From Pseudomonadales bacterium (GTDB taxonomy: Bacteria; Pseudomonadota; Gammaproteobacteria; Pseudomonadales; Azotimanducaceae), in contig JANQKS010000106.1 of the NCBI GenBank assembly GCA_028281005.1, forward strand, positions 1 to 64,000: DNA of 64,000 nucleotides, given 5' to 3'. The notes beneath the pieces were generated by a model. The model did no database searches, was not told the origin of the DNA, and was given only the letters and a program-made list of their open reading frames with translations. Position numbers and translations under genes: made by a program. This document shows, one piece after another, positions 15,257-41,261 of the stretch (positions within the stretch are counted from its first letter, which is position 1; each line of letters starts with the position of its first letter).

Positions 15257-15345
15257 GTGACGGCCTATTCAGGAGGCTCTGCGACAGGACGTCGCAGCGC
15301 TCGTGAATCTTCGATTCCCGCGCGCCCATGGATGGCTGCAGTGCG
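15257..15345 (+). repeat. Fold-back element A (degenerate, right arm missing)
   Basis: The left arm ends GGCCTATTCAGGA and runs into a core beginning GGCTCTGCGACAGG. Hairpin I is TGCGAC/GTCGCA with loop AGGAC; relative to copy B it keeps pairing through a compensated change (C-G to A-T). An extra GAATC/GATTC hairpin follows, then GCCCATGGATGGC. No complementary right arm follows; instead the arm sequence reappears in direct orientation at 15567-15584. Confidence 0.65.
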
Positions 15346-15407
15346 TGGATAACGAAACCCAAGCAAATCGACCAGCGCATAGACTTGGGTAGAGTAAGGC
15401 ATGCGTA

Positions 15408-15499
15408 GGCCACAACCGGTTCAGGAGGCTCTGCGCCAGGGACGGCGCAGCGCCAGCGTCCATGGATGGACTTGCAGCGGTCCTGAACCGGTTGTGGCC
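15408..15499 (+). repeat. Fold-back element B (variable arm, conserved core)
   Basis: A 19-bp perfect inverted repeat (left arm 15408-15426, GGCCACAACCGGTTCAGGA; right arm 15481-15499) encloses a 54-nt core. The core has hairpin I TGCGCC/GGCGCA with loop AGGGAC and hairpin II GTCCA/TGGAC around TGGA. The core is 49/54 identical to element F, whereas the outer arms share only the inner heptamer-like end. There is no T-tract, so it is not an intrinsic terminator. Confidence 0.88.
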
Positions 15500-15639
15500 G
15501 TGAGCAGGCCGACCAGATCTGACTGATTCGGAGCCCTTGGATGCTGTTTCGATCGACTCGCTCTCGGTGAGGGCCTATTCAGGACAAAAATCCATTGCGT
15601 TGCACCAACCAGCGTTCGTCGCTAACGTACGCGGCCGAT

Positions 15640-16755
15640 ATGACAAACAGCACCCCGCAATCCAGATACCAAGCCAAGTTGGCCGCCGGTGAATTCCTAG
15701 AGGACCCGGCTCAAGCTCAGGTGGTTGAGTTGCTGGAAGACCTCTACCAGCGCCTTACCCATCGTCCTGAGCCAAGCGGCCTGTCCGGCTTGTTGGGCAA
15801 GCTACGTCCGCAGCGGCCCGTGCCGGAGCGGGGGTTGTATTTGTGGGGAGGCGTGGGCCGCGGCAAAACCATGTTGATGGACTTGTTTTACGACTGTTTG
15901 CCCGCCCGGCGGCGTTTGCGTATGCACTTCCACCGTTTCATGCGGCGCGTACACGATGGCTTGAAACAGTGGTCTGGTACCGCGGACCCACTGCGAAAGG
16001 TGGCGGCTGACATCGCGGCGGATGCGGATGTGCTCTGTTTTGATGAGTTTTTTGTCTCGGACATCGGTGACGCGATGATTTTGGCGGAAGTGCTTGATGA
16101 GCTGTTTAGCCTTGGCGTGACGTTGGTGGCGACTTCCAATGTGGAGCCGCAGCACCTGTATGAAAACGGCTTGCAACGCAGACGTTTTTTGCCGGCGATC
16201 GATTTGTTGTATACCCATACGCAAGTTCAGCAAATTGATGATGGTTTGGACTTTCGCTTGCGGGCGTTGCAACAGGCGGAGATTTACCACTTCCCCTTGG
16301 GTAAGGAGGCAGAGGACAGCCTGCTACGCAGCTTTAAAGCGCTGGCGCCGAACACGCCGGAACAGGGTGTGGTTTTGCAGATTGAAAACCGACCCATACA
16401 GGCGCGGATGGTGGCTGACGATGTCGTGTGGTTTGACTTTGCAGAGTTGTGTGAGGGTCCGCGCAGCCAAAACGACTACATCGAGCTGGCGATGGTTTAC
16501 CACGCGGTCTTACTGAGTAATGTACCGGCATTGACCATCCTCAAAGAGAGCGCCGCGCGTCGCTTCATCAGTCTGGTGGATGAGTTCTATGATCACGGGG
16601 TCAAACTCATCATTAGCGCGGAGGTGGGTATCACTGATTTGTATCAGGGTGAGCGGCTGCGATTTGAATTTGAACGCACCGCGAGCAGGCTGTTGGAGAT
16701 GCAATCTGAAGAGTACCTTGGCGGCTCCCATCTGCCCGCTGCAGAGGTGTCTTGA
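15640..16755 (+). CDS. zapE: Cell division AAA+-like ATPase ZapE (AFG1 family)
   Basis: ZapE is an AFG1-type P-loop ATPase that associates with the Z-ring and affects constriction in E. coli. The 371-aa form chosen starts [14 protein letters not shown]. Walker A is [13 protein letters not shown] (about residue 70), followed by the family segment [10 protein letters not shown] and Walker [29 protein letters not shown] is also characteristic. The track's longer N-terminus, beginning just after the lone arm repeat, lacks support. It lies upstream of rplM-rpsI, its conserved place. Confidence 0.93.
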
Positions 16756-16770
16756 AGCGCCAGAACTCGG

Positions 16771-16799
16771 TTGTAAAGCGCTACCTGTTCCTCTAACAT
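16771..16799 (+). promoter_or_regulatory. Sigma-70-like promoter for rplM-rpsI
   Basis: TTGTAA (16771-16776) and TAACAT (16794-16799) are separated by 17 bp, giving a start roughly 30 nt before the rplM ATG. A strong ribosomal-protein promoter is expected here. Confidence 0.5.
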
Positions 16800-16834
16800 T
16801 CGCGTCCCGAATTTTAGGCCCCCTGGGAATAACA

Positions 16835-17269
16835 ATGAAAACGGTAAGCATGCGTGACCAGGACGTGGATCGGTCATGGTGGTTAATCGACGCGAAGAAC
16901 CAAACTCTGGGTCGTCTGGCGACTGAGGTCGCACGCCGTTTGCGTGGCAAGCACAAGCCCGAGTACACCCCGCATGTGGACACCGGCGATTACATCATCG
17001 TCATCAATGCGGACAAAGTGCGTGTCACCGGCAACAAAGAAACCGGCAAAATCTACTGGCGTCATAGCGGCTACCCAGGCGGCATTCGCGGCACCAGCGT
17101 TGCGGACATGCGGGAAAATCATCCGGAAAGGATCATCGAAAAAGCCGTCAAAGGCATGTTGCCGCGTAACCCCTTGGGCCGCGCGATGTATCGCAAGTTG
17201 AAAGTATACGCAGGAGCTGAGCACCCCCATGCGGCTCAGCAACCCACTACCTTGGAGCTGTCTGCATGA
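16835..17269 (+). CDS. rplM: 50S ribosomal protein L13
   Basis: L13 is an early-assembling protein of the large ribosomal subunit. The 144-aa product starts [20 protein letters not shown] and contains the signature [21 protein letters not shown] near residues 108-128. The ORF track begins at 16580 within zapE; the ATG at 16835 is the family start. It overlaps rpsI by 4 nt (ATGA), the normal rplM-rpsI pair. Confidence 0.98.
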
Positions 17270-17655
17270 CCGATACCAACTACGGCACTGGCCGACGTAA
17301 GACTGCCGCTGCGAGAGTTTTTCTCGCCTCTGGTTCTGGGCAAATCACGGTGAACGCAAAACCGCTAGACGAATTCTTCGGCCGTGAAACCTCCCGGATG
17401 GTTGTACGCCAACCCCTCGAGGTTGCCGAACTGTCAGACAAACTCGACGTGAAAGTCACCGTCAAAGGTGGTGGTGCCTCCGGCCAGGCCGGCGCCATTC
17501 GCCATGGCATTGCGCGTGCGTTGGTTGATTACGATGAGACATTGCGCAGCCCGATGCGCGCGGCTGGCTTCTTAACCCGCGACGCACGTGAGGTTGAGCG
17601 TAAGAAAGTCGGCTTACGAAAAGCGCGCAAGCGACCGCAATTCTCCAAGCGCTAG
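17266..17655 (+). CDS. rpsI: 30S ribosomal protein S9
   Basis: S9 is a small-subunit protein whose C-terminal tail contacts the P-site tRNA anticodon. The 129-aa sequence has the typical N-terminus [15 protein letters not shown], the signature [19 protein letters not shown] and the universally conserved basic tail ending RKRPQFSKR. It is co-transcribed with rplM. Confidence 0.98.
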
Positions 17656-17765
17656 CGGGCCAAAAATACCTCCCAGCCACACATGCGTCTGCTCGCAGCA
17701 GGCAGGGGGCGGGGCGGTTGTTAGTTAAAACGAGCGGACAAAGCACGCCTTGAAACCGTCGCCTG

Positions 17766-17774
17766 TGCTACAAT
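17766..17774 (+). promoter_or_regulatory. Extended -10 promoter element for petABC
   Basis: TGCTACAAT matches an extended -10. It overlaps the ATG that the ORF track uses for petA, which supports the downstream TTG at 17836 as the real start. Confidence 0.5.
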
Positions 17775-17835
17775 GCCGCGGTTTGCAAGCGATTGCATTT
17801 TCCTCGTCTTTTTAAACCAGATTGGAGCACAAGCT

Positions 17836-18474
17836 TTGAGCAGTGATGATGCCAGTCTTGAGAATCCTGCCGCAGAAGCAGGGTCCTACGACCAAAACAA
17901 CAGCAATAAAAGCCGGCGTTACTTCTTGATCGGCGCGACCGCCGCGGTTGCTGGCGTCGGAGTGGTTGGCGCCGCCGTCCCTTTCTTAAGTTACTGGAGC
18001 CCGAGCGCTAAAGCGCGTGCCGCGGGTGCACCCGTAAAGATTGATTTCAGCAAGCTTCTTCCCGGAGAGATGTTGAGCCCCATTCCGGCTTGGCGCGGCA
18101 AACCCATTTTTGTCGTCTACAGGGATGAGGCCACCATTGCGGAGCTGAACGAACAACCCAACGATCTGGCAGACCCTGATTCGGTGAGCCCAATGCAGCC
18201 GGACTACGCGCAGAACCCAACTCGCTCCACACGACCGGAAATTGGCATCTATGTAGGCATCTGCACCCACCTGGGGTGTTCGCCGAAGCTGGTGCCCGAG
18301 AGCAACTTCGTCGAAGCAGACCAGGGTGGCTTCTTTTGCCCGTGCCACGGCTCGAAGTTTGATATGGCTGGCCGCGTCGGTGCAGGTTATCCGGCGCCGG
18401 ACAACTTGGAAGTGCCGCCGCATAGTTTTGAATCCGATACGGTGGTGGTGATCGGCGAGGAGGGAGCAGCCTGA
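17836..18474 (+). CDS. petA: Ubiquinol-cytochrome c reductase Rieske iron-sulfur subunit
   Basis: PetA carries the 2Fe-2S cluster that accepts electrons from ubiquinol in the bc1 complex. The chosen 212-aa form starts at TTG with GGAG nine bases upstream. A Tat-type signal/anchor (SRRYFLIGATAAVAGVGVVG) is followed by the cluster ligands CTHLGC and CPCHGSKFD. The longer ORF-track start overlaps the predicted -10. The stop overlaps the petB ATG. Confidence 0.95.
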   Translation: MSSDDASLENPAAEAGSYDQNNSNKSRRYFLIGATAAVAGVGVVGAAVPFLSYWSPSAKARAAGAPVKIDFSKLLPGEMLSPIPAWRGKPIFVVYRDEATIAELNEQPNDLADPDSVSPMQPDYAQNPTRSTRPEIGIYVGICTHLGCSPKLVPESNFVEADQGGFFCPCHGSKFDMAGRVGAGYPAPDNLEVPPHSFESDTVVVIGEEGAA

Positions 18475-19766
18475 TGTCCGCACCCGATCAACAGCAAGAC
18501 GATTTCTTTAAACAGGACAACTGGTTTACGAAATCTGTTGCCTGGGTAGACGCGCGCTTTCCGGCCACGGAAACGTTCGAATACCACATGTCGCGCTACT
18601 ACGCGCCAAAAAACTTTAACTTCTTTTATGTCTTCGGCTGGCTTGCCACCTTTGTGCTGGTGCTGCAGATTGTCACCGGCATCTGGTTAACGATGAACTA
18701 CGTGCCGTCCGGAGCTGGGGCGTTCGCGTCGGTTGAATACATCATGCGTGATGTCGAGTATGGCTGGTTGATGCGTTACCTGCATTCCACCGGGGCATCG
18801 TTTTTCTTCATTGTCGTTTATCTGCACATGTTCCGTGCGCTGCTGTATGGCTCATATCGCGGCCCGCGGGAGTTGTTGTGGATGATCGGTATGGCCATCT
18901 TCCTAGCCCTCATGGCGGAAGGCTTCTTTGGTTACCTGCTGCCCTGGGGCAACATGTCCTACTGGGGTGCCCAGGTCATCGTTTCCTTGGTTGGCGCGAT
19001 TCCGTACATTGGTCCGGACCTCATGGATTGGGTACGTGGCGACTTTCTGATGTCCGAAGCGACGCTCAACCGCTTTTTTGCCCTGCACGTGATTGCGCTG
19101 CCCTTGGTGTTGGTGATGCTGGTGTTTGTGCACTTTGTAGCGCTGCACCACGTGGGTTCCAACAACCCGGACGGCGTCGAGATCAAGAAGAACAAAGGGC
19201 CGGACGGAGTGCCGCTGGATGGCATCCCGTTCCATCCCTACTACACCGTGCATGACATCCATGCCACGGTCGTTTTCTTGTTTATCTTCTCTGTCTTCGT
19301 GTTCTTCCAACCGGAAGGGTGGGGATATTTCCTTGAGAAACCCAACTTCCAAGAAGCGGATTCGTTGAAAACGCCGGAGCTCATTGCACCGGTTTGGTAC
19401 TACACACCGTTCTACTCCATGCTACGGGCAGTGACCTTCCCGATGTTTGGGTTGGATGCGAAGTTTTGGGGTTTTGTGGTGATGGTGGCCGCCATCATCA
19501 TACCCGCCGTGTTGCCATGGCTTGACCGCAGCCCGGTGAAGTCCATGCGCTACAAGGGTAAGTGGTCAAAATTCATGTTGGCGCAATTTGTAGTGAGTTT
19601 CTTCATTCTGGGTTGGCTTGGCACCTTGGCGGCCACCGACGGTCGTACCGCAGCCGCGCAATTCTTTACGATTACTTATTTCCTCTACTTTATGTTAATG
19701 CCTTGGTACACGCGCATAGAGAAATGTAAACCTGAGCCGGAACGTGTGACGTTCAGCGGGCACTGA
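18474..19766 (+). CDS. petB: Ubiquinol-cytochrome c reductase cytochrome b
   Basis: Cytochrome b is the membrane core of complex III, holding two b hemes and both quinone sites. The 430-aa protein has eight or more hydrophobic segments; the N-terminal half includes WLMRYLHSTGASFFF and the heme-ligand histidines in LHMFRALLYGS and LHVIALPLVL, and the Qo-site motif PVWY-type appears in IAPVWYYTPFYS (the PEWY counterpart is PVWY). It is the second gene of petABC with 1-nt overlap at its start. Confidence 0.97.
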   Translation: MSAPDQQQDDFFKQDNWFTKSVAWVDARFPATETFEYHMSRYYAPKNFNFFYVFGWLATFVLVLQIVTGIWLTMNYVPSGAGAFASVEYIMRDVEYGWLMRYLHSTGASFFFIVVYLHMFRALLYGSYRGPRELLWMIGMAIFLALMAEGFFGYLLPWGNMSYWGAQVIVSLVGAIPYIGPDLMDWVRGDFLMSEATLNRFFALHVIALPLVLVMLVFVHFVALHHVGSNNPDGVEIKKNKGPDGVPLDGIPFHPYYTVHDIHATVVFLFIFSVFVFFQPEGWGYFLEKPNFQEADSLKTPELIAPVWYYTPFYSMLRAVTFPMFGLDAKFWGFVVMVAAIIIPAVLPWLDRSPVKSMRYKGKWSKFMLAQFVVSFFILGWLGTLAATDGRTAAAQFFTITYFLYFMLMPWYTRIEKCKPEPERVTFSGH

Positions 19767-19782
19767 GAGGAATCGCGCAACA

Positions 19783-20577
19783 ATGAAAAAAACCACAGCC
19801 ATCATCCTGTCTGTTTTACTGAGTCTGCCAACGCTGGGTTGGGCGGCGTCCGCGATCAACTGGGACATGGAACCGTTTGATCCGGACCTGCACGACAAGC
19901 CGTCGTTGCAAAACGGCATGCGTTTGTATGTGAACTATTGTCTCGGCTGCCACAGCTTGAAGTTTCAGCGTTACGAAATGACGGTGGACTTCCTTGGCAT
20001 TCCGCACGAGACGGCGTTAGAGAATCTGATCTTCTCAGGCCAAAAGATCGGTGAGCCGATGACAACGGCCATGGATCCAGAACTTGCTAAGAATTGGTTT
20101 GGCGCACCGCCGCCGGATCTGACTCAGGTGGCGAAGACCCGTGGCACTGAGTGGATCTACAACTTTTTGCAGACGTTCTATGATGACCCCAGCCGTCCGT
20201 TAGGGGTCAACAACAAAGTGTTTGAAAATGTCGGTATGCCTCACGTGTTGGCTGACCTCCAGGGTATACAACGCGAAGCCTGTGTTCAGGTTCCGAAGAT
20301 GGCGGAAAACGGCGGAGAAATGCGGGATCCGTTGGTTCCGGGCTTGGCCATCACCGAAGAGAAGTGCGGTGAATTAGTGGTCGATGAGGGAACCGGTTTA
20401 TACAGTGCCGACGAGTACCGCGCTGCCGTGTATGACCTCACCAATTTCTTGTACTACGTGGCAGAGCCCACGCGGTTGCAGCGCTATCGGACCGGTATTT
20501 TTGTACTGTTGTTCCTGGTCATTCTCGGCTGCTTTACCTACCTGTTGAACCGGGAGTACTGGAAAGACGTGCGCTAG
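19783..20577 (+). CDS. petC: Ubiquinol-cytochrome c reductase cytochrome c1
   Basis: Cytochrome c1 passes electrons from the Rieske protein to soluble cytochrome c. The 264-aa product has a signal peptide (MKKTTAIILSVLLSLPTLGWA), the heme motif CLGCH near residues 46-50, a likely sixth ligand Met in the second half (EPMTTAMDP region or later), and a C-terminal anchor helix (TGIFVLLFLVILGCFTYLL, about residues 238-256). It ends the petABC operon. Confidence 0.96.
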   Translation: MKKTTAIILSVLLSLPTLGWAASAINWDMEPFDPDLHDKPSLQNGMRLYVNYCLGCHSLKFQRYEMTVDFLGIPHETALENLIFSGQKIGEPMTTAMDPELAKNWFGAPPPDLTQVAKTRGTEWIYNFLQTFYDDPSRPLGVNNKVFENVGMPHVLADLQGIQREACVQVPKMAENGGEMRDPLVPGLAITEEKCGELVVDEGTGLYSADEYRAAVYDLTNFLYYVAEPTRLQRYRTGIFVLLFLVILGCFTYLLNREYWKDVR

Positions 20578-20604
20578 CCGCGCGCCTACAAATGGGGACA
20601 TAAG

Positions 20605-20666
20605 GCTGGCCGAGTGGTACCACGGCCAGCATCACCTGGCCTAAGGCTTCGATCCGGTGCCTTAGG
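20605..20666. other. Two adjacent hairpins between petC and sspA
   Basis: GCTGGCCG (20605-20612) pairs with CGGCCAGC (20623-20630), and CCTAAGGC (20640-20647) pairs with GCCTTAGG (20659-20666), each an 8-bp perfect stem. No T-tract follows. They probably end or stabilise the petABC transcript, or lie in the sspA leader. Confidence 0.5.
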
Positions 20667-20711
20667 TCTGTCTAACTACTTCGCTTAATTTATCGCAAAG
20701 GTGTCTACTCC

Positions 20712-21344
20712 ATGAGCATAGTCACAAAACGATCGTCAATGACACTGTTCTCGGATGCCCGGGATCACTATTCACACCGCGTACGTATGGTACTGGCAGA
20801 AAAAGGAGTGACTGTCGATATCGTTGACGTCGATCCCAGCAAGAAGCCCGAAGACCTTGCGGAAATTAACCCCTACAACAGTCTGCCGACTTTGTTGGAC
20901 CGTGACCTCGTGCTCTACGAAGCAAACGTCATCATGGAGTATCTTGACGAGCGTTTCCCACATCCACCGCTATTGCCGGTATACCCGGTACAGCGAGCGC
21001 TCACCCGTTTGTGGATTACCCGGGTCGAAAAAGAGTGGAGCACGCGCCTGGATGTGCTCATGGCTGGCAAAGGCCGTGAGACGGTAATTACCAAGGCGCG
21101 TAAAGAGTTGCGCGAAAGCATCATCGCCATCGCGCCAATTTTCGGGGAAAAGCCCTACTTCATGAACGAAGAGTTTTCGTTGGTGGATTGCTGTGTTGCC
21201 CCGATTCTTTGGCGCCTTAAAGAAGTGGGTATCACCCTGCCGGAGAAATCAACGCGCCCGTTGCTCAAGTACATGCAGACCATGTTTGAGCGGGATGCGT
21301 TCCGCGCCAGTCTCACTGAGGCTGAAATCGAGATGCAAGAGTGA
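20712..21344 (+). CDS. sspA: Stringent starvation protein A
   Basis: SspA is a glutathione-S-transferase-fold protein that binds RNA polymerase and alters transcription under starvation and in virulence regulation. The 210-aa product has the thioredoxin-like N-terminal domain (TLFSDARDHYSHRVRMVLAEKG) and the all-helical GST C-terminal domain; INPYNSLPTL carries the cis-proline. It overlaps sspB by 4 nt and follows petC, the Pseudomonas arrangement. Confidence 0.96.
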   Translation: MSIVTKRSSMTLFSDARDHYSHRVRMVLAEKGVTVDIVDVDPSKKPEDLAEINPYNSLPTLLDRDLVLYEANVIMEYLDERFPHPPLLPVYPVQRALTRLWITRVEKEWSTRLDVLMAGKGRETVITKARKELRESIIAIAPIFGEKPYFMNEEFSLVDCCVAPILWRLKEVGITLPEKSTRPLLKYMQTMFERDAFRASLTEAEIEMQE

Positions 21345-21784
21345 AACCTCAGCGCCCCTACCTCTTGCGGGCGTTGTATGAGTGGCTGGTAGACAGCAAC
21401 GACGTGCCGTACATACTGGTTGATGCCCATGCAGCGGACGTGCAAGTCCCCACGGAACACGTCAAAGACGGTCAGATTGTGCTGAATCTAGGGCCTGAAG
21501 CGGTCCGTGACTTAGCGCTTGAACAAGACTATGTGATGTGCAGCAGCCGCTTCTCTGGCCGGGCCTATGAACTTTACTTACCCATGGCCAGCATACGCGC
21601 CATATATGGCCGCGATACGCGCCAAGGCATGGTGTTTCCCGAAGAGGAGTTCAGCGACACTGCGGTTGCTGACAATTTAGCCAACGCAGCCCCGGATGAA
21701 GCTGGAAAGCCGGACAAGGCGCAGAAGGCAGACAATCCGGAGAAAAAAGGCGGCAGCGACAAACCACCACTCCGCTTGGTTTAG
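21341..21784 (+). CDS. sspB: ClpXP specificity-enhancing factor SspB
   Basis: SspB tethers ssrA-tagged and other substrates to ClpXP. The 147-aa protein has the conserved dimeric substrate-binding domain (PYLLRALYEWLVDSNDVPYILVDA, then MASIRAIYGRDTRQGM) and a flexible charged linker ending in the ClpX-binding tail KPPLRLV. The start is GTG, overlapping the sspA stop. Confidence 0.96.
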   Translation: MKPQRPYLLRALYEWLVDSNDVPYILVDAHAADVQVPTEHVKDGQIVLNLGPEAVRDLALEQDYVMCSSRFSGRAYELYLPMASIRAIYGRDTRQGMVFPEEEFSDTAVADNLANAAPDEAGKPDKAQKADNPEKKGGSDKPPLRLV

Positions 21785-21824
21785 GGCGCCGCACGATTGG
21801 CGCTGGGCTCAAGCAGAGTCCAAT

Positions 21825-22361
21825 TCATAGATATTCAAACACTTTCACGATCTTCTGTACGCCGTACACTTGCGAAGTGACTTTCACCGCGTTGTCCGCC
21901 TGGGCGCGGGTCAGTAAACCCATCAAATAGACCACACCGTTTTCCGTGACGACCTTGGTTTTTGTGCCGTAGGCCTCGTCGGACACAATCAAACGAGACT
22001 TCACCTTGGTGGTCAACCAACTGTCATTGGTGCGAGCCATCAATGAGATTGGGCCACCGACAGTCAGTTCGTTGTGCACCTTGCGTACCCGCTGCAGGCT
22101 TTGCGCCACTTCGGCGGCTTTATCCCGCAACGCTTCGCTCGCGACTTGCCCAGCGAGGAGGATCACACCGTTGTAAGACACCACCACGAGGTGAGAGCCC
22201 TTAAATCCGGGGTCGGATCTGCGGATTTCCCGTTTCACCATCGGTTCAAGCACGGCGTCATCGATAAAAACGCCGGGTGTACGCTTGCTGGGGTCGCTTA
22301 CGCAACCGGCTAACAAGGCAATGAACAGAATGTTAAGGGGGAGTTTTGATGCGTGCGCCAT
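21825..22361 (-). CDS. dolP: Outer-membrane lipoprotein DolP (YraP), dual BON domains
   Basis: DolP is an outer-membrane lipoprotein linked to envelope integrity and BAM function, binding anionic lipids at division sites. The 178-aa form chosen starts MAHASKLPLNILFIALLAGC, giving a lipobox LLAGC with the acylated cysteine at residue 20. Two BON domains follow (about residues 45-110 and 120-178). diaA, usual upstream partner between yraN and dolP, is missing. Confidence 0.9.
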   Translation of the reverse strand: MAHASKLPLNILFIALLAGCVSDPSKRTPGVFIDDAVLEPMVKREIRRSDPGFKGSHLVVVSYNGVILLAGQVASEALRDKAAEVAQSLQRVRKVHNELTVGGPISLMARTNDSWLTTKVKSRLIVSDEAYGTKTKVVTENGVVYLMGLLTRAQADNAVKVTSQVYGVQKIVKVFEYL

Positions 22362-22418
22362 AAGTACATGTACAGCTAATTTGGGAGGCGCTAGTTTGGG
22401 GGTGGAACTCACCTCGCG

Positions 22419-22811
22419 TCAACGGTGACTGGCAGAATTAGCGCTAAATGCGCCCGCGATCCAATTGATGTCTGGGGCCTGCAGCGTTCCGCTCAAGGCA
22501 ACCACGTCGAAGCGGCAGGGCCATTGGGCGTATTGCCGATGCAGTTGCTGGAAGCGCTGGGCACTGCGCGTTAACCGTGTGCGTTTGGTGTGAGTCACGC
22601 TGGCCAGCGCGCCGCCATAATTTTGAGCGGCGCGGTAACGTACTTCAACAAACACTAAGATCTGCGCTTGCAACTTGGACTTGTCGCGCATGACCAAATC
22701 GATCTCGCCGGTCTTGCAGCTGAAGTTGCGTTTGATCAGGCGCAACCCCGCAGCACGCAAATATTTGAGCGCGGCGTCTTCAGCTTGTTGGCCGATGCGC
22801 TGGGTGCGCAT
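22419..22811 (-). CDS. yraN: UPF0102 family protein YraN
   Basis: This is a small protein of the UPF0102 family with a predicted endonuclease-like (Holliday-junction-resolvase-type) fold and unclear function. The 130-aa product shows the family pattern GQQAEDAALKYLRAAG, then KTGEIDLVMRD and VFVEVRYR, which together carry the putative D-(E/V)xK-type residues. It lies 5 nt downstream of lpoA and just ahead of dolP in the conserved lpoA-yraN-(diaA)-dolP order. Confidence 0.92.
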   Translation of the reverse strand: MRTQRIGQQAEDAALKYLRAAGLRLIKRNFSCKTGEIDLVMRDKSKLQAQILVFVEVRYRAAQNYGGALASVTHTKRTRLTRSAQRFQQLHRQYAQWPCRFDVVALSGTLQAPDINWIAGAFSANSASHR

Positions 22812-22816
22812 TGCGC

Positions 22817-25436: not shown

Positions 25437-25760
25437 CGCCCAGTAGTAGTGACCACGGCGGTGGGGTGGATAGGCCCCTCGTCGGCATGTTTAGGTGCTG
25501 CGACGACCCCCAAGTGAAGCCCTTCAATACCGCGAGTTGTTGACACCAAAGGCGCAGGGGGCCAGAGCCCATGTTCAGGAGCGTCGCGCGCATGGACGCG
25601 CGCGCGCAGCTACAGGGATGTATTCACCGCGGTCCTGAACATGGGCTCTGGCCCCCTGTGCCGAACGAGTCCGACAATCAACTTCGGCAGCGATTTGAGG
25701 AAACCACACCTTGCAAAAGCGGCGTTGTGAATCCCCATTAACCCGTCTAGTCTGTCCCCA
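25437..25760. other. rsmI-rnpB intergenic region
   Basis: This 324-bp gap holds fold-back element C (25551-25662) and the rnpB promoter region. The sequence just before rnpB has a weak -10 like TAGTCT near 25748. No protein gene is supported; the minus-strand ORFs here are artefacts of the structured RNA and the repeat. Confidence 0.6.
25551..25662 (+). repeat. Fold-back element C
   Basis: Thirty-base arms (25551-25580 and 25633-25662) pair at 29 positions plus one G-T (G-U in plus-strand RNA). The 52-nt core begins GCGTCGCGCGCATGGACG; hairpin I is GCGCGC/GCGCGC with loop ATGGAC and hairpin II is TACA/TGTA around GGGA. The core differs from the reverse complement of element D at a single base, although the arms are entirely different. 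Confidence 0.9.
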
Positions 25761-26103
<343 letters not shown>

Positions 26104-26181: not shown

Positions 26182-26293
26182 GGTCGCAGGGCTTCAACCT
26201 CACTTTCAGGACCGCGGTGAATACATCCCTGTAGCTGCGCGCGCGCGTCCGTGCGCGCGACGCTCCTGAAAGTGAGGTTGAAGCCCCACGACC
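26182..26293 (-). repeat. Fold-back element D (reverse orientation)
   Basis: Thirty-base arms (26182-26211, 26264-26293) pair at 28 positions. The two mismatches are A-C and C-A on the plus strand, so both become G-U in minus-strand RNA, the core-sense direction. The 52-nt core is the reverse complement of element C with one difference, in the loop of hairpin I (ACGGAC instead of ATGGAC). Confidence 0.9.
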
Positions 26294-26551: not shown

Positions 26552-26559
26552 GTCGTAAA

Positions 26560-31544: not shown

Positions 31545-32629
31545 TGTTGTTGTGGTTGACTGAATATCTGGCGAATTTCATAAGTGGCTTCTCGGTATTC
31601 CATTACCTGACCTTCCGTACCATGGTCAGCGTCATGACCGCCTTGGGGATGTCTCTGCTGATTGGCCCTTACGTGATCGCCAAGCTAACGGATTTACAGA
31701 TTGGCCAAACGGTCCGGGATGAAGGCCCTCAGAGTCACTTAAGTAAAGCGGGTACACCCACCATGGGTGGGGCCCTGATATTGATTGTTATCGCCATGAC
31801 AACTTTGCTGTGGGGGGATCTGAGCTCGCGCCATATATGGGTCGTGTTGGCGGTAACCTTAGCGTTTGGTGTGATTGGTTGGGTTGACGACTATCTGAAA
31901 ATTGCGCGCAAAAACAGTGCCGGCTTGGTCGCGCGCTGGAAGTACTTTTGGCAGACGGTGGTGGGTTTTGCCGCGGCAGTGTTCCTATTCACTTCCGCCG
32001 AATTACCCGCGGAAACCGACTACATTGTGCCGTTCTTTAAAAACGTAGCCATACCGTTAGGGGCAGCGGGATTTATCCTGGTGAGCTATCTGATGATCGT
32101 CGGTATGAGTAACGCCGTTAATCTAACCGATGGTTTGGATGGGCTAGCCATCCTGCCGACGGTGATGGTCGGCGCCGCCCTGGGGTTGATTGCCTACGTG
32201 GCGGGTAACACCGAGTTTTCCGCCTATCTGCAGATTCCCTACATTCCCGGGGCGGGAGAATTAGCGGTGTTCTGCGGCGCGTTAATCGGCGCCGGGTTGG
32301 GTTTTTTATGGTTCAACACGTATCCCGCCCAGGTGTTTATGGGAGACGTGGGCGCTTTGGCGCTGGGTGCGGCGCTGGGTGTGGTGGCTATCATCGTGCG
32401 TCATGAAATTGTGCTGTTGATCATGGGTGGTTTGTTTGTCCTGGAAACCGCCAGCGTCATCATACAAGTGGCGTCATTCAAGCTGACCGGTAAGCGCATC
32501 TTCCGCATGGCGCCGATTCACCATCACTTTGAATTAAAAGGCTGGCCGGAGCCCAAGGTGATCGTACGGTTATGGATCGTGACCTTGGTGCTGGTCACGG
32601 TGGGCCTGTCGACGTTGAAGCTGAGGTAG
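31544..32629 (+). CDS. mraY: Phospho-MurNAc-pentapeptide translocase MraY
   Basis: MraY transfers phospho-MurNAc-pentapeptide to undecaprenyl phosphate, forming lipid I in the inner membrane. The 361-aa protein has about ten membrane segments; catalytic and Mg-binding segments [24 protein letters not shown] and [14 protein letters not shown] are intact, as is the histidine motif [13 protein letters not shown]. It begins at ATG overlapping the murE stop. Confidence 0.97.
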
Positions 32630-32634
32630 GCTGG

Positions 32635-33978: not shown

Positions 33979-35091
33979 ATGGCTTCGTCTTCTCAAGGCT
34001 TGCGCATCGCTCCGCTGGTCATCCCGTGGGCGGCGTTGCTGACGGTGGGCACGGTCATGGTGGGTTCCGCCGCGATTGCCCTCGGTGGCAGCTATTTAAG
34101 CAAACACCTGGTATTCCTCGGCGTTGCAGGTGTGGCCAGCGTCATCGTCTACGCCGTACCGCCGAGTTGGTGGCACCGATTGTATCTGCTTGGATGGCTG
34201 GCTTCGGCGCTGGTTGCGGTGTTGGTGCTTATCCCGGGGGTGGGCTACGAGGTAAATGGCGCCCAACGTTGGATCAGGTTGGGTGGGTTTTCCCTGCAAG
34301 CGGCGGAGGTGGCAAAGTTTGGTTTGGGCATCTACCTGGCGGGCTACTTAAGCCGCCATCATGAGAAGCTTCGAAGTGACCCGGAAGTGCTGTTTGTGCC
34401 GCTGTGCATGATAGGTGTGGTGTGTGGGTTGCTGATCGCGCAGCCCGATCTCGGTTCTGCGGTGGTCATAGTGGCCGCCAGTGTAGGCTTATTGTTCCTG
34501 GCCGGGGCGAAGCTGCGTTATTTCCTGTTGATTGTTGTGTTGGGCGCTGCAGCTTTGGCCGCCTTGGTGATGTTTGCGCCGTACCGCATGCAACGTCTGA
34601 TTGCCTTTCTCGACCCATGGTCCGTGGCGTTTGGCAGTGGCTACCAATTGACCCAAGCGCTGATTGCTTTTGGCCGTGGTGAGTGGTTTGGCCTTGGGCT
34701 TGGGGAAGGGGTGCAGAAGTTGTACTACTTGCCCGAAGCGCACAACGATTTCATCTTTGCAGTGGTGGCGGAAGAGCTAGGCGGCGTTGGCGCTATCTTG
34801 TTGGCGTTGCTGTTGTGCTACCTGGTTGTGCAGGTGTTCTTGCTGGCCCGGCGCCATATTCAGAATCGAGCCTACTTTGCCGGCATGGTGGCCTACTTTG
34901 CCGGGCTGGTACTAGGCATACAGTTCCTGGTAAATCTTGGTGTAAATACCGGTGTCCTACCTACCAAGGGTCTAACCTTACCCTTTGTCAGCTACGGCGG
35001 TAACAGTCTCATCATCTCCTGTGCTTTATTGGCGTTGGTACTGCGCACATCCCAGGAGAGTTTGGTCAAAGCCGGAGGTCGACGTGGCTGA
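33979..35091 (+). CDS. ftsW: Septal peptidoglycan polymerase FtsW
   Basis: FtsW is the SEDS-family glycosyltransferase that polymerises septal glycan with FtsI. The 370-aa protein has ten hydrophobic segments and the SEDS hallmarks [20 protein letters not shown], the [18 protein letters not shown] loop and the terminal [15 protein letters not shown]. It overlaps murC by 8 nt. murG, the usual gene between ftsW and murC, is missing. Confidence 0.96.
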
Positions 35092-36502
35092 GCCGGTGAC
35101 CTACCAAGTGCCGGAGATGGGGCGTATCCGCTGCATTCATTTTGTCGGTATTGGCGGCGCGGGTATGTGTGGTATCGCTGAAGTGCTGATTAATCAGGGT
35201 TACCAAGTGACCGGCTCCGATGTGCGCGCTTCGGAAAACACTGCACGCCTGATCGAAAAAGGCGCTGTGGTGCACATTGGTCATGATGCGCAGTGGGTGG
35301 CAAACGCCGACGTGGTGGTCATCTCTAGCGCCGTGGCTGAGGACAATCCGGAGGTGCAGGCGGCCCATCAGCAGCGGACACCGGTGGTTCCCAGAGCGGA
35401 AATGTTGGGGGAGTTGATGCGTTACCGTCACGGTATCGCTGTGGCAGGTACCCATGGTAAAACCACCACCACCAGTTTAATCACGGAAATATTCCGCTGC
35501 GCGGGATTGTCACCAACATTTGTTATCGGCGGTTTGCTCAACAGTGCTGGTACCAATGCCGAGCTCGGTATGGGGCGTTATCTGATCGCCGAAGCGGACG
35601 AATCTGATGCGTCGTTTCTGCGTTTACAACCGATGTCGGCGGTGATCACCAACATCGACAAGGACCACATGTCGACCTACGGCAACGATTTTGGTGTGCT
35701 CAAAGAAACTTTCATCGAGTTTGTGCATCGGTTGCCTTTTTACGGCACTGTGGCGTTGTGTGTCGATGATGCGGATGTGGTTGATATCTTGCCGCAACTG
35801 GCGCGGCCGGTATTGACTTATGGATTATCTGCAGAGGCGCAGTTTCGCGCGCATAACATACAAGCCAACGGTAAAGCCTGGACATTTTCCGTCGATCGCG
35901 GCGAGTTAGGCCCAAGCCTAGACATCAGCCTGGCCATTCCCGGAGAACACAACGTTTTAAACGCCACTGCTGCCGTTGCCATCGCCACCGACGAAGGCAT
36001 TGCGGATGCCCACATCATTGCCGGTTTGTCCGGCTTTGCCGGTGTGGATCGGCGCTTCCAAGTCACTGAAAAGATCAAAATTGGCGCCAACCGCGTCATC
36101 CTGGTGGACGATTATGGACATCACCCCACAGAAGTGGCGGCGGTGATTGCAACTGCACGCAAAGTGTGGCCTCAAGCGCGTTTGGCGATGCTTTATCAAC
36201 CGCACCGGTATTCCCGTACACGGGATTTGTTTGAAGATTTTGTTCGCGTCCTGAATGAAGTGGATGCGCTCATGTTGGTGGACGTTTATGCCGCCGGCGA
36301 ACCTTCGATAGCAGGGGCTGATGGCGCCGCGTTGGCCCATGCCATACGCCAGCGCGGTCAGTTAAGCCCGATGTTTGCGCAGCATCCGGAAGAAGCGCTC
36401 GAGCTGTTGGAAACATTTACCAGCGGACAAGATGTGCTGCTGGTGCAAGGCGCCGGGAACGTCAGCCAGATCTCTAACCAGCTGAGGCAGGAACGTGTCT
36501 AG
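35084..36502 (+). CDS. murC: UDP-N-acetylmuramate--L-alanine ligase MurC
   Basis: MurC attaches L-alanine to UDP-MurNAc. The 472-aa form starts at GTG, with GGAGG about six bases upstream, inside the end of ftsW; the longer ORF lies within ftsW. The N-terminal [18 protein letters not shown]-loop [26 protein letters not shown] and [12 protein letters not shown] are typical. It overlaps ftsQ by 8 nt; ddl, often between them, is absent. Confidence 0.96.
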
Positions 36503-37310
36503 CGCTGCCGCAAAGTACTCGCAACGGCTGCTGAGTAGAGTCTTGCTGGTGCTGACGCTGGTGTCCATCGTGGTGTTGTGTGCCGGGATATGGCGGATGT
36601 TAGACGTACCGCTGCGCGGGTTTGTTATTGACGGTGAACTGACCGGCGGAGAACGTCTGGAGCTGCAACAGGCGCTGGCCACCATGCAGTTGCGTGGCAT
36701 CTTGTCGACGTCGCTGACGTCGGTGGCCCAAACCGTGCGGGCGCTACCCTGGGCGCGTGAGATTAGCGTAAGGCGTCAATGGCCGGACAAGCTAGTCGTG
36801 ACCTTACACAAAGCCAACCCTGTGGCGCGCTGGGGAGAAGATCAATATTTATCTGCGTTTGGCGATTTGTTGAGTTTGCCGGACAACTATGTCGGCTTGC
36901 CGCGCTTCGATGTCAGTGTGGCCAGTCCGGTCGCGGCTATGGAAGTGTATCGGTTACTTGATCAAATTCTCGCGCGAGAGAATCTTTCCATACAAGAGCT
37001 TCAGCAGAATCCCCAGGGCGAATGGCGTCTTAGTCTGGTGCGGGGACCGCTGGTGGTGCTGGGTGCGGAGCAGCTGAACGAACGTATGCACCGTTTTCTG
37101 CTGTTGTACCGGCGAGTACTGAGCCAAGAGGAACAACCGGCAGCGTACATCGACGCGCGTTATACCAATGGCTTGGCCGTGCGCTACGTTGAGCCGCTAG
37201 CGGCAGACAACCCGCAAATCAGCGCTGCAAGCGTCGACGCGGCACCTCCAGCTTGGGTGGCGCGCAACCAACCAACGACTTTAATCGAGGAAGAACCCAG
37301 TGGCGGCTGA
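36495..37310 (+). CDS. ftsQ: Cell division protein FtsQ
   Basis: FtsQ is a bitopic scaffold of the divisome that recruits FtsLB. The 271-aa product starts at GTG inside the murC end, has a short cytoplasmic tail, one membrane helix ([21 protein letters not shown], about residues 16-36), then the POTRA domain ([22 protein letters not shown]) and beta domain ([28 protein letters not shown]). It overlaps ftsA by 11 nt. Confidence 0.94.
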
Positions 37311-38529
37311 ACCCGAGTTACCCAAGATCGTCGGTCTCGACATCGGCACCAACAAGGTGGCTTGTATCGTGGCTGAAGTGAACAGCGACGGTGAGCTGGA
37401 GATCATTGGTATCGGCACCCATCACTCACGCGGCCTCAAAAAAGGTGTGGTGGTGAATATCGAGTCTACCGTGCAGTCGATTCAGCGCGCCGTTGAAGAA
37501 GCAGAGCTGATGGCCGGCTGCACCATCGACGCCGTATATGCGGGTATCGCCGGTAGTCACATCCGCTCGCTGAATTCTCACGGGATTGTCGCCATTCGTG
37601 ATCGTGAGGTGTACGCCCAGGACGTTGAGCGAGTCATTGATGCCGCCCAAGCCATGGCGATACCCGCCGATCAGAAAATCCTGCATGTACTACCCCAAGA
37701 ATATGTCATTGATAGCCAGGAAGGCGTGAAAGAACCGTTGGGGATGTCAGGTGTGCGCCTGGAAGCCAAGGTGCACATGGTGACGTGTGCCGTAAATGCA
37801 GCTCAGAACATAGAAAAGTGTATTGAACGCTGCGGGTTGCAGGTTAACGATGTCATCTTGGAGCAGTTGGCCTCCAGTTATTCGATTCTCACGGAAGATG
37901 AGCGTGAGTTAGGTGTGTGCATTGTCGATATCGGCGGCGGCACAACTGACATTGCGGTATTTACCGGCGGAGCCATCCGGCACACCGCGGTAATCCCCAT
38001 AGCGGGTGATCAGGTGACTAACGATATCGCTATGGCTTTACGTACACCAACGCAAAATGCGGAAGACCTAAAAATAAAATATGCCTGCGCCTTAACTCAA
38101 CTGGCGCGGGTGGACGAAATTATCAAGGTGCCTGGGGTTGGCGATAAGCCTGCTCGGGAATTGTCTCGTCAGTCGTTGGCGGAAGTGGTTGAGCCCCGCT
38201 ATGACGAGCTTTTTACCTTGATACAGGCGGAACTGCGTCGCAGCGGTTTCGAGGACCTGATTGCAGCCGGCATCGTTCTCACCGGTGGCGCTGCAAAAAT
38301 GGAGGGCGTGATCGAGCTAGCGGAAGAGATCTTCCACATGCCGGTCAGTCTGGGCGTGCCGCGTAACGTGGCAGGGTTGAAGGACATCGTACGTAACCCG
38401 GTCTACGCAACTGGCGTTGGCTTGTTGCAGTACGGGTTGGAACGAGAAAAAGAGATGCCCACAAAACGTAACTCCCGCAAGGGTGGCGCGTTAACAAGGG
38501 TGAAACACTGGATAAGCGAAAATTTTTAG
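37300..38529 (+). CDS. ftsA: Cell division protein FtsA
   Basis: FtsA is an actin-fold ATPase that anchors FtsZ to the membrane through a C-terminal amphipathic helix. The 409-aa protein starts at GTG overlapping ftsQ; phosphate-1 motif VGLDIGTNKVACIVAEV, phosphate-2 CIVDIGGGTTDIAVF and adenosine motif GIVLTGGAAKMEG are present. The last residues TRVKHWISENF form the expected membrane-targeting helix. ftsZ follows after 15 nt. Confidence 0.97.
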   Translation: MAAEPELPKIVGLDIGTNKVACIVAEVNSDGELEIIGIGTHHSRGLKKGVVVNIESTVQSIQRAVEEAELMAGCTIDAVYAGIAGSHIRSLNSHGIVAIRDREVYAQDVERVIDAAQAMAIPADQKILHVLPQEYVIDSQEGVKEPLGMSGVRLEAKVHMVTCAVNAAQNIEKCIERCGLQVNDVILEQLASSYSILTEDERELGVCIVDIGGGTTDIAVFTGGAIRHTAVIPIAGDQVTNDIAMALRTPTQNAEDLKIKYACALTQLARVDEIIKVPGVGDKPARELSRQSLAEVVEPRYDELFTLIQAELRRSGFEDLIAAGIVLTGGAAKMEGVIELAEEIFHMPVSLGVPRNVAGLKDIVRNPVYATGVGLLQYGLEREKEMPTKRNSRKGGALTRVKHWISENF

Positions 38530-38544
38530 CTGGAGATATATACG

Positions 38545-39696
38545 ATGTTTGAATTGGTCGACAGCGCGCCACAAAGCGCGGTTATAAAGGTAATTGGGGT
38601 CGGTGGTGGCGGCGGTAACGCTGTGCAACACATGGTCTCGAAACAAGTGGACGGCGTGGATTTTATTGCCGCCAATACGGATGCGCAGGCTTTAAAAAGC
38701 CTGGATGCTCAAACCACGCTGCAAATTGGCAGTGGTATTACCAAGGGCCTCGGCGCGGGTGCGAACCCAGAGGTGGGTCGAGCGGCAGCGGTGGAAGACC
38801 GCGACCGCATCGGCGAGGTATTGTCCGGTGCCGACATGGTGTTTATCACTGCCGGTATGGGTGGTGGGACAGGCACAGGTGCGGCACCCATTGTAGCGGA
38901 AGTGGCGCGCGAACTGGATATCCTCACCGTTGCCGTGGTAACCAAACCGTTTAACTTTGAGAAACGCAAAGACGTGGCGGACCTGGGTATACGCGAATTG
39001 TCGCAGCACGTGGATTCGCTCATCACCATCCCCAATGAAAAATTGTTGGCGGTGTTAGGAGAACGAACCAGCATGCTGGATGCGTTCAGCGCTGCCAACG
39101 ATGTGTTGTTGGGTGCGGTGCAAGGTATCGCGGATCTGATCATACGGCCGGGTATGATCAACGTGGATTTTGCCGATGTACGTACCGTGATGTCGGAGAT
39201 GGGTATGGCGATGATGGGCACCGGGCGGTCGTCTGGTGAAAACCGGGCCCGGGACGCAGCGGAAGCCGCGATCCGTTCCCCTCTTCTGGAAGATGTCGAC
39301 TTGCACGGTGCACGCGGCATTCTGGTGAACGTCACCGCAGGACCGGACCTCAACATTGGCGAATTCACCGACGTTGGCAACATTGTTGAAGACTTCGCCT
39401 CCTCTTCCGCGACTGTGGTTGTGGGTACCGTCATCGATCCGGACATGGGTGAAGAGCTGAAGGTAACGGTGGTCGCTACCGGTCTCGGGGAAGAGGAAAT
39501 CCCGAGCATCGTGGTGGACAACACAACCGTGGCGCAACAAGCATTAGACGGCCAAGTTGACTACGCACAACTGGATCGTCCTGCGTTTGCTCGTCATCAA
39601 AGTAGCATGCAACAAGACAATCTCGCGGAAGACCAAGACGGCCAAGACCTAGATTACCTGGATATCCCGGCCTTTTTGCGCCGCCAGGCGGACTAA
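38545..39696 (+). CDS. ftsZ: Cell division protein FtsZ
   Basis: FtsZ is the tubulin-like GTPase that builds the cytokinetic ring. The 383-aa protein has VIGVGGGGGNAVQHMV, the tubulin signature GGGTGTGAAP (residues about 108-117) and the catalytic T7-loop segment NVDFADVRTVMSEMGMA. The C-terminal peptide LDYLDIPAFLRRQAD is the FtsA/ZipA-binding tail. A strong terminator follows 45 nt downstream. Confidence 0.98.
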   Translation: MFELVDSAPQSAVIKVIGVGGGGGNAVQHMVSKQVDGVDFIAANTDAQALKSLDAQTTLQIGSGITKGLGAGANPEVGRAAAVEDRDRIGEVLSGADMVFITAGMGGGTGTGAAPIVAEVARELDILTVAVVTKPFNFEKRKDVADLGIRELSQHVDSLITIPNEKLLAVLGERTSMLDAFSAANDVLLGAVQGIADLIIRPGMINVDFADVRTVMSEMGMAMMGTGRSSGENRARDAAEAAIRSPLLEDVDLHGARGILVNVTAGPDLNIGEFTDVGNIVEDFASSSATVVVGTVIDPDMGEELKVTVVATGLGEEEIPSIVVDNTTVAQQALDGQVDYAQLDRPAFARHQSSMQQDNLAEDQDGQDLDYLDIPAFLRRQAD

Positions 39697-39740
39697 GCGT
39701 CGCTGACTCCCGGTCGCAACGCTGTCGTTTCTCCAGCTTC

Positions 39741-39777
39741 GGCGCACAACGCTTGGCCGCGTTGTGCGCCCTGTTTT
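39741..39777 (+). terminator. Intrinsic terminator after ftsZ
   Basis: GGCGCACAACGC (39741-39752) and GCGTTGTGCGCC (39759-39770) form a perfect 12-bp stem with a 6-nt loop, followed by CTGTTTT. It separates the dcw operon from lpxC. Confidence 0.85.
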
Positions 39778-39876
39778 AAAAGGCGGAGAAAGGCAGGTTT
39801 TGATACAAAATGAAACAAAAAGTGCGGCATGGTCCATAGTGTGGGCTGCTATGCCTTTGCTACCATGCGCCGCCGT

Positions 39877-40806
39877 ATGTCTATGACAAATTCATTACAA
39901 CAACGCACCCTGAACAACACCATCCGCGCCACCGGCGTCGGATTGCACACGGGTGAAAAAGTGTATGTAACACTGCGCCCCGCACCGGTGGATACCGGGA
40001 TTGTGTTTGTGCGTTCGGACCTAGCGAATGCGGTTGAGCTCAAAGCCCATGCCCTCAATGTAGGGACCACCACCATGGCGACCTCATTGACGGATGGTAG
40101 CCATGAAATATCCACCATTGAACACTTGATGTCCGCCTTTGCCGGGCTCGGCATCGACAACGCCATTGTTGAAGTCAGCGCTCCGGAATTGCCGATTATG
40201 GACGGCAGCGCCGCCCCCTTTGTGTTTTTGCTGCAATCCGCAGGGATTGCTGAGCAGAACGCCGCCAAAAAGTTTGTGCGGATCTTAGAGCCGGTGCGTA
40301 TCGAACAGGGCGATGTATATGCGGAGCTTACCCCGCATGATGGTTTTCAGCTGAATTACACGCTGAAATACGAACACCCGGTGTTCAAGAAACATGAACA
40401 CACGGTGTGTGTAGATTTTTCGTCCACGGCCTATGTCAAAGAAGTGAGCCGTGCCCGCACCTTCGGCTTCCTCGCCGATTATGAAAAGCTGCGCTCCATG
40501 AACCTGGCCAAAGGTGGCAGCTTAGACAACGCTGTGGTGGTAGATGACTATCGGATACTCAACGAGGAAGGGCTGCGTTTGGAAGATGAGTTTGTCAAAC
40601 ACAAGATTCTTGACGCCATCGGTGATCTTTATTTGCTTGGGCACAGTCTGATTGGGCGGTTTACCGGACATAAGTCTGGACATGGACCGAATAATTTGTT
40701 GCTGCGGAAGCTGCTGGAAACGCCAACCTCCTATGACATTGTGACGTTTGACGACATCGCAACGGCTCCAATCGCTTATTCCAAACCGCTGCTGGCCAGC
40801 GCCTGA
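39877..40806 (+). CDS. lpxC: UDP-3-O-acyl-N-acetylglucosamine deacetylase LpxC
   Basis: LpxC is the zinc enzyme of the committed step of lipid A synthesis. The family start is near [19 protein letters not shown], so the chosen ATG (39877; 39883 is equally possible) drops 16 codons of the track ORF. Zinc ligands are in [10 protein letters not shown] (His) and the pair HKILDAIGD (His, Asp); the general base/acid segment [17 protein letters not shown] is intact. It is about 309 aa, normal length. Confidence 0.96.
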
Positions 40807-40880
40807 TCCACCGCTCCTTGTTCCAATCTTTTTGAAAACGCTTTTTGGCGTTTTACCGCTGTTGTTGGGTCGATCGAGAC

Positions 40881-40992
40881 GGCCCGGCCCGGGATGGTGC
40901 TGTTCAGGACCGCTGCGAGTCCATCCATGGACGCTGGCGCCTCGCCATCCATGGCTCGGAGCCTCCTGAACAGCACCATCCCGGACCGAGCC
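40881..40992 (-). repeat. Fold-back element E (reverse orientation)
   Basis: Twenty-nine-base arms (40881-40909, 40964-40992) pair at 27 positions; both mismatches are C-A on the plus strand and hence G-U in minus-strand (core-sense) RNA. The core is again 54 nt and, reverse complemented, shares GCGCCAGCGTCCATGGATGG with element B. Hairpin I is reshaped (GCC/GGC around ATGGAT, with flanking CGA and GAG). Confidence 0.88.
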
Positions 40993-41147
40993 TCGCGTTA
41001 ACCTTGGGTCAGCGGTGAATCGCTGATTGGCGGTTTTAATAGTTGGGAAGTACTGCGTGGTGAATCAGGCGCTAGCCAACAGCAGTAGGCACTAACTGAC
41101 CGAAACCGCCACGAGTCGTCAGAACTTAGAAGCCGGGCGCCACCCAA

Positions 41148-41261
41148 GGTTCGAGGGTTGCCGGTCCCCGATCGGGAGGCTCTGCGCCAGGGACGGCGCA
41201 GCGCCAGCGTACAGGGATGTATTTACAGCGGTCCCGAGCGGGGACCGGCAACCCTCGAACC
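41148..41261 (+). repeat. Fold-back element F
   Basis: Thirty-base arms (41148-41177, 41232-41261) pair with one A-G mismatch. The arm ends read GGGA/TCCC rather than TTCAGGA/TCCTGAA, with a compensated change. The 54-nt core matches element B at 49 positions; the differences include a compensated C-G to A-T change in hairpin II. GTACAGGGATGT (41209-41220) equals the CsrA consensus RUACARGGAUGU. Confidence 0.9.

What the first reader, a model, noticed from the sequence alone, without database searches (positions are those of the whole stretch)
15257..41261. Family of intergenic fold-back elements with conserved core and copy-specific complementary arms
Five complete elements (B 15408, C 25551, D 26182, E 40881, F 41148) and one degenerate (A 15257) share one plan: a 19-30 nt arm, a 52-54 nt core, then the complementary arm. 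Cores are closely related (C/D 51 of 52; B/F 49 of 54). Apart from the inner heptamer TTCAGGA/TCCTGAA (changed but still mostly paired in F), arm sequences are different in every copy, yet pairing is kept at 90-100%. This is the reverse of integron attC sites or ordinary MITEs, where ends are constant. Either the element enters pre-existing palindromes, or its insertion duplicates flanking DNA in inverted orientation, or selection preserves a long clamp of free sequence. GGAG precedes the first hairpin in all copies, recalling the tetranucleotide beside REP hairpins moved by RAYT proteins.
Basis: partly seen in the sequence, partly recalled or inferred. Interest (0 to 1): 0.9.

Follow-up and report, generated by a model that had tools for sequence, protein, structure and literature searches.

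The report
CsrA-type RNA hairpins with coevolving arms
The five fold-back elements are copies of a known but little-studied bacterial RNA family (TwoAYGGAY, predicted to bind the global regulator CsrA), present in about 40 copies in this genome; the two arms of each copy change together as if one arm were copied from the other, which explains how every copy can have different yet perfectly matching arms.

Summary
In detail: five long fold-backs, the only such palindromes in the window, belong to a family of about 41 copies in the genome. They are relatives of Rfam RF01731, TwoAYGGAY. Two sibling copies reach the curated cut-off; in the window, E scores below it. The core is two hairpins whose loops keep the CsrA motif ANGGA, about 21 nt apart. 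The enclosing ~28-bp stem is free in sequence but obligatory in pairing, and mispairs are almost only G·U on one strand (35:2 and 151:11), so that strand's fold is selected. In related genomes the inner arm changes as whole base pairs at about the flank's per-site rate: 31 double against 2 single changes, where 3 and 64 are expected if the arms mutated independently. That is the signature of arm-to-arm template copying plus selection. All four element-bearing genomes of the genus carry csrA; 26 of 37 genomes lack it. Transcription and CsrA binding are untested.

The parts
15265..15335 (+). element A: 3'-truncated copy of a subtype with an extra hairpin between the two GGA hairpins
   Evidence: 16.5 bits, model positions 19-92; same extra hairpin as L015
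15399..15509 (+). element B: complete, between a trypsin/PDZ protease gene (-) and an AFG1-like ATPase gene (+), both starting away from it
   Evidence: 104 bits; neighbours
25553..25660 (+). element C: complete, between rsmI and rnpB
   Evidence: 85.6 bits; rnpB; RsmI; no element at this site in 29 congeners
26184..26291 (-). element D: complete, between rnpB and mraZ, sense strand opposite to rnpB
   Evidence: 79.6 bits; MraZ
40882..40991 (-). element E: complete, downstream of lpxC, divergent partner of F
   Evidence: 115.3 bits; RF01731 30.3 bits; LpxC
41150..41259 (+). element F: complete, divergent partner of E
   Evidence: 115.2 bits
40947..40952 (-). element E hairpin 1 loop AUGGAU, CsrA-type site
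   Evidence: columns 40-45 of A3; A and GGA invariant in 25 copies
40923..40928 (-). element E hairpin 2 loop AUGGAU, CsrA-type site
   Evidence: columns 64-69 of A3; A and GGA invariant in 25 copies
41209..41220 (+). element F hairpin 2, GUACAGGGAUGU, an exact match to the published CsrA SELEX consensus RUACARGGAUGU
   Evidence: sequence; consensus quoted in PMC7652899

Best explanation
Each element is DNA for a TwoAYGGAY-type RNA. On the sense strand two adjacent hairpins present ANGGAY loops with their GGA triplets about 21 nt apart, suited to one CsrA dimer, and a ~28-bp stem closes the structure. SHOWN: family relationship to RF01731, invariant ANGGA loops on covarying stems, obligatory arm pairing, sense-strand asymmetry of mispairs, csrA in every element-bearing genome examined, and arm base pairs changing in both arms at once in related genomes. 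INFERRED: (1) the element is transcribed and binds, and so titrates or locally recruits, CsrA; (2) the stem is a structural clamp whose sequence does not matter; (3) pairing is kept not only by selection but because a mutation in one arm is soon copied into, or erased by, the other through template switching at the DNA palindrome. The arms then drift as base pairs at roughly the single-site rate, so old copies end up with unrelated but matching arms.
For: Family: RF01731 hits at or above the cut-off in two own-genome copies (44.5, 43.0 bits) and in G026 and G041; E 30.3 bits. Structure: 25 own copies aligned without gaps over 110 columns: 96.6% of cells paired, 274 double-changed cells, covariation 0.679 versus 0.154 shuffled and at most 0.129 when slid; arm columns 10-21 standard-paired in all 25 copies with mostly 3-4 pair types. 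Strand: G.U 35 versus A.C 2 in this genome, 151 versus 11 in other genera. CsrA: loops match the SELEX consensus and the spacing fits the 10-63 nt bridging range (PMC7652899); csrA is in all 4 element-bearing genomes of a genus where 11 of 37 have it (hypergeometric P = 0.005) and in 18 of 18 RF01731-positive genomes against 235 of 274 overall. Arm copying: 23 strict orthologous comparisons, flanks 8% different: inner 19 bp 31 double and 2 single changes, 64 singles and 2.8 doubles expected under independence; doubles per bp 0.071 against 0.080 per flank site; 20 of 31 are transversions, so not the usual G.U route. Isolated changes with identical cores: L306/L327, L273/L330, L262/L295. A wider set agrees: 113 double, 4 single paired, 3 broken.
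Against: No transcript data; no conserved promoter or U-tract seen, so the transcript is undefined. In tandem gene pairs the elements show no preference for the sense of the neighbouring genes (27 same, 22 opposite), which argues against a plain 3'-UTR role. The csrA correlation is confounded by phylogeny and genome size and is weak at class level. The arm-copying test comes from Microbulbifer, Halovibrio and Vreelandella relatives, not this species; the comparisons share three genomes and several doubles cluster in one element, so they are not independent. Elements were detected by requiring a mostly paired stem, which slightly disfavours broken copies. The flank rate includes coding sequence and is not strictly neutral. 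The transition/transversion contrast is marginal (p = 0.048). Conversion by paralogues could explain clustered changes, though not isolated single-pair changes.
Confidence: 0.68

Rival explanations
1. Selection alone: a TwoAYGGAY RNA under very strong selection for a perfect clamp, with ordinary two-step compensatory mutations and short-lived intermediates.
For: Strand asymmetry shows selection acts; outer stem positions do show intermediates (40 single-paired against 39 double).
Against: Inner pairs change at about the flank per-site rate with almost no intermediates, many by transversion; deleterious intermediates should slow double changes far below that rate.
Confidence: 0.27
2. Selfish mobile element: a small element or divergent two-element unit that spreads, with the GGA hairpins kept for its own mobility or its control by CsrA.
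For: Patchy distribution (4 of 40 congeners); C and D absent at orthologous sites; 37 matches in G030, many of two near-constant-arm subtypes within larger repeated units; two-element units inverted against colinear flanks in 3 of 7 cases.
Against: No associated transposase identified and no Y1 transposase in G000; no target duplication resolved; orthologous single elements persist with orientation kept in 19 of 20 cases; one viral contig and no plasmid carry it.
Confidence: 0.2
3. Element recognised as folded single-stranded DNA by a recombinase, as integron attC sites are.
For: Strand-specific structure and free arm sequence also fit ssDNA recognition; units invert.
Against: Loops keep an RNA-binding consensus and the elements track csrA; no conserved cleavage-site box found at the arm ends beyond AGG/CCG.
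Confidence: 0.05
4. Ordinary intrinsic terminators or REP/RAYT repeats.
For: Elements lie more often between convergent genes (27 of 83 against 33 of 210 background gaps).
Against: No U-tract after the stem on the sense strand; no conserved short REP arms; no RAYT found in the genome.
Confidence: 0.03

Closest known systems
TwoAYGGAY RNA (Rfam RF01731; Weinberg et al. 2010, PMC2864571; proposed CsrA binding by Gardner and Eldai 2014, PMC4333381)
   Same: Two adjacent hairpins with AYGGAY-type loops inside an external stem; Gammaproteobacteria; tandem-GA variant of hairpin 1 in 5 of 25 copies.
   Different: The papers found here treat it as a motif of unknown function with a poorly conserved external stem; not described there: about 40 dispersed copies per genome, divergent two-element units, a near-perfect inner clamp changing in concert, sense-strand wobble asymmetry.
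CsrB/CsrC and RsmX/Y/Z sRNAs
   Same: GGA hairpin loops predicted to sequester CsrA; several loci per genome.
   Different: Those have many GGA sites, an own promoter and a Rho-independent terminator; this has two sites, no recognised promoter or terminator, and dozens of loci.
Template-switch mutation maintaining RNA hairpins (Monttinen and Loytynoja 2022, PMC8794818)
   Same: One event changes or restores both stem sides, giving multibase compensation without intermediates.
   Different: Reported there from rRNA and microRNA histories; here in a dispersed bacterial family with dozens of copies per genome, and inferred rather than observed.
REP/REPIN elements with RAYT transposases
   Same: Intergenic palindromes in many copies.
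   Different: Arms not constant, no Y1 transposase found in the genome, loops carry the CsrA motif.

Membership tests
TwoAYGGAY (RF01731) | two tandem hairpins with AYGGAY-type loops | tested here: met
   loop A and GGA positions invariant in 25 copies
TwoAYGGAY (RF01731) | external stem enclosing both hairpins | tested here: met
   28-bp helix, 97.0% of cells paired
TwoAYGGAY (RF01731) | score at or above the curated cut-off (43 bits) | tested here: inconclusive
   two sibling copies 44.5 and 43.0; none in the window, E 30.3
Csr/Rsm antagonist sRNA | csrA in the genome | tested here: met
   2 csrA genes in G000
Csr/Rsm antagonist sRNA | own promoter and Rho-independent terminator | tested here: not met
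   no conserved promoter upstream, no U-tract after the stem
Csr/Rsm antagonist sRNA | binds CsrA | not testable with these tools
   motif, spacing and co-occurrence only
REP/RAYT | Y1 (RAYT) transposase in the genome | tested here: not met
   PF01797: no match in G000
MITE | constant terminal inverted repeats | tested here: not met
   arm positions 6-18: mean pairwise identity 0.37, composition expectation 0.29
MITE | target-site duplication | tested here: inconclusive
   divergence at empty sites too high
integron attC | conserved R-box core sites and integrase | not tested
   outer borders AGGNC/GNCCG seen; no integrase search was made
intrinsic terminator | stem followed by U-tract | tested here: not met
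   sense-strand sequence after the 3' arm is not T-rich

The most novel reading that the evidence does not exclude
In several gammaproteobacterial genomes a dispersed family of CsrA-type RNAs keeps perfect ~19-bp clamps chiefly by unbiased arm-to-arm DNA copying, so that base pairs, not bases, are the units of mutation and drift at about the single-site rate; the two-element units are also repeatedly inverted, giving tens of parallel natural experiments on template switching per genome.
Probability: 0.45. Interest if true: 0.78.

Novelty: new variant of a known kind. Interest (0 to 1): 0.62.

Why it matters
It ties a little-studied Rfam family to the Csr system by loop consensus, spacing, strand asymmetry and co-occurrence, and shows it can reach about 40 copies per genome, many times the number of known Csr sRNAs. 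It also offers dozens of parallel stems in one bacterial genome for an old question: how long RNA stems stay perfectly paired while their sequence changes. The ratio of double to single changes, and the match between the base-pair rate and the single-site rate, are directly testable by resequencing strains or with a reporter.

Tried and rejected
R1 was built with a mis-registered stem and was not used. Insertion into pre-existing palindromes: no stem in 29 congeners at the C and D sites. Arms copied from elsewhere in the genome: two arms searched with 1-2 mismatches; one gave only itself, the other itself plus one unrelated one-mismatch site. RAYT: none in G000. Plasmid or phage carriage: no plasmid, one viral contig. 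Eukaryotic microRNA and Ysr224 Rfam hits are far below their cut-offs and reflect any long hairpin. Cis-regulation by sense orientation: no orientation preference in tandem gene pairs (simple ORF calling, some elements counted inside spurious ORFs). Alcanivorax CsrR1/2 (PMC9788540) and Pseudoalteromonas Pf1-3 (PMC11882849) were read as possible matches; as described they are different RNAs.

Full report
CHECK. The five fold-backs exist at the stated places. Exact 16-bp inverted repeats spaced 40-100 nt occur only at these five places in the window, and at none in 20 Markov simulations. A pattern search of the host genome (G000, 5.1 Mb, 135 contigs) finds 37 places with 0-3 mismatches and none for the reversed control pattern. 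A covariance model from 25 copies (R2) gives 52 matches in G000; removing opposite-strand matches and one weak match leaves about 41 copies, a lower bound. Element A is a 3'-truncated copy of a subtype with an extra hairpin, like L015.

ANATOMY. In sense orientation: a semi-constant 5' border ending in AGG, a 27-30 nt arm usually ending TTCAGGA, hairpin 1 with loop ANGGAY, hairpin 2 with loop ANGGAU, GCGGT, the complementary arm, then CCG and a semi-constant 3' border. In 25 ungapped copies every stem varies with its partner: 274 double-changed cells, covariation 0.679 against 0.154 for shuffles, and never above 0.129 when slid. Arm columns 10-21 are standard-paired in all 25 copies although most columns use three or four pair types; in the outer columns wobbles and mismatches are common. 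Mispairs are G·U far more often than A·C (35:2 here, 151:11 in other genera), so the fold of the sense strand, not merely the palindrome, is under selection. Arm positions 6-18 are close to random between copies (mean identity 0.37, composition expectation 0.29).

IDENTITY. Rfam's curated cut-offs give no hit to an element in the window, but with an E-value threshold element E matches RF01731 TwoAYGGAY at 30.3 bits, and siblings L003 and L012 reach 44.5 and 43.0 against a cut-off of 43, as do copies in G026 and G041. Rfam places the family in clan CL00106; from my own knowledge this is the CsrA/Rsm-binding clan. Weinberg et al. 2010 found the motif (PMC2864571); Gardner and Eldai 2014 proposed CsrA binding and remark that the external stem is not well conserved (PMC4333381). 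The loops fit the CsrA SELEX consensus RUACARGGAUGU, F exactly, and the ~21-nt gap between the GGA triplets fits the 10-63 nt range that one CsrA dimer bridges (PMC7652899).

DISTRIBUTION. R2 finds elements in 4 of 40 genomes of the genus: G000 about 41 copies, G030 37 matches, G026 6, G025 4. csrA is present in 11 of 37 genomes of the genus, including all four (hypergeometric P = 0.005, phylogenetically confounded). In a class-wide sample 18 of 274 genomes have RF01731, mostly in several copies, and all 18 have csrA, against 235 of 274 overall. Named genomes with close relatives of the element include several Microbulbifer species, Vreelandella, Halovibrio and Halospina. Only one viral contig and no plasmid carry it.

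ORIGIN AND TURNOVER. At the rsmI-rnpB-mraZ sites of C and D, 29 other species of the genus have neither element nor palindrome; the elements were gained in this lineage, or lost in all the others, as whole units. In Microbulbifer and relatives, elements persist at orthologous sites between species whose flanks are about 80-93% identical. Neighbouring elements within 700 bp are divergent in 31 of 41 cases. Two-element units are inverted against colinear flanks in 3 of 7 comparisons, single elements in 1 of 20. In G030 many copies belong to two near-identical subtypes within larger repeated units. The family can therefore multiply, but no enzyme was identified; the RAYT idea fails because the genome has no PF01797 match. 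Elements are commoner between convergent genes than background gaps and rarer between divergent ones, and show no sense preference in tandem gaps.

HOW THE ARMS STAY MATCHED. In a first set of orthologous pairs the inner 18 bp show 113 double changes, 4 single paired and 3 broken; the outer 9 bp show 39, 40 and 11. In a closer set, three related genomes with 92 elements, 23 strict comparisons give 31 double and 2 single changes in the inner 19 bp, against 2.8 and 64 expected if each arm mutated independently at the flank rate of 0.080 per site. Doubles per base pair (0.071) nearly equal the single-site flank rate. That is what unbiased arm-to-arm copying predicts: a mutation in either arm is half the time spread and half the time erased. 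Twenty of 31 doubles are transversions, which do not pass through G·U. Isolated changes of one or two pairs with identical cores (L306/L327, L273/L330, L262/L295) argue against replacement by a paralogue. The proposed mechanism, template switching during replication of a palindrome, is known in microbes and has been proposed to maintain RNA stems (PMC8794818). Selection must act too, or the wobble asymmetry would not exist. The comparisons are not independent and come from other genera, so this step is inferred.

VERDICT. A dispersed, high-copy variant of a known RNA family, most likely of the Csr system, with an unusually clear record of concerted arm evolution.

Noticed in passing
window 52-100 and 10149-10197: A 49-nt direct repeat at 94% identity, 10 kb apart, unrelated to the elements.
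   Followed up: no
window 15566-15585: GTGAGGGCCTATTCAGGAC repeats the 5' arm and heptamer of element A (GTGACGGCCTATTCAGGA) in direct orientation, without a core: perhaps a remnant.
   Followed up: no
Genus of the window, genomes G001-G036: csrA was not found in 26 of 37 genomes of this genus, including several nearly complete ones.
   Followed up: no
G051 and G306: Nine and eight csrA-like genes in single genomes.
   Followed up: no
L123/L194, L145/L184, L194/L222: The ~300-bp divergent two-element unit, in the first pair bounded by GTGGCGG...CCGCCAC, is inverted between species while the flanks are colinear.
   Followed up: partly
L154 compared with L141: A stretch of roughly 80 bases inserted between the two GGA hairpins of one element, itself containing further inverted repeats.
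   Followed up: no
G030 loci L055, L056, L063, L065: Tandem partial duplications that repeat only hairpin 2 and the 3' arm.
   Followed up: no
arms of G000 copies: The 5' arm is G-rich (257 G, 139 T, 117 C, 81 A over the pooled variable positions), so the two arms are compositionally asymmetric.
   Followed up: no
Microbulbifer arms, about 20 bp from the core: A tandem G.U pair recurs at the same place in many copies, just where perfect pairing ends.
   Followed up: no
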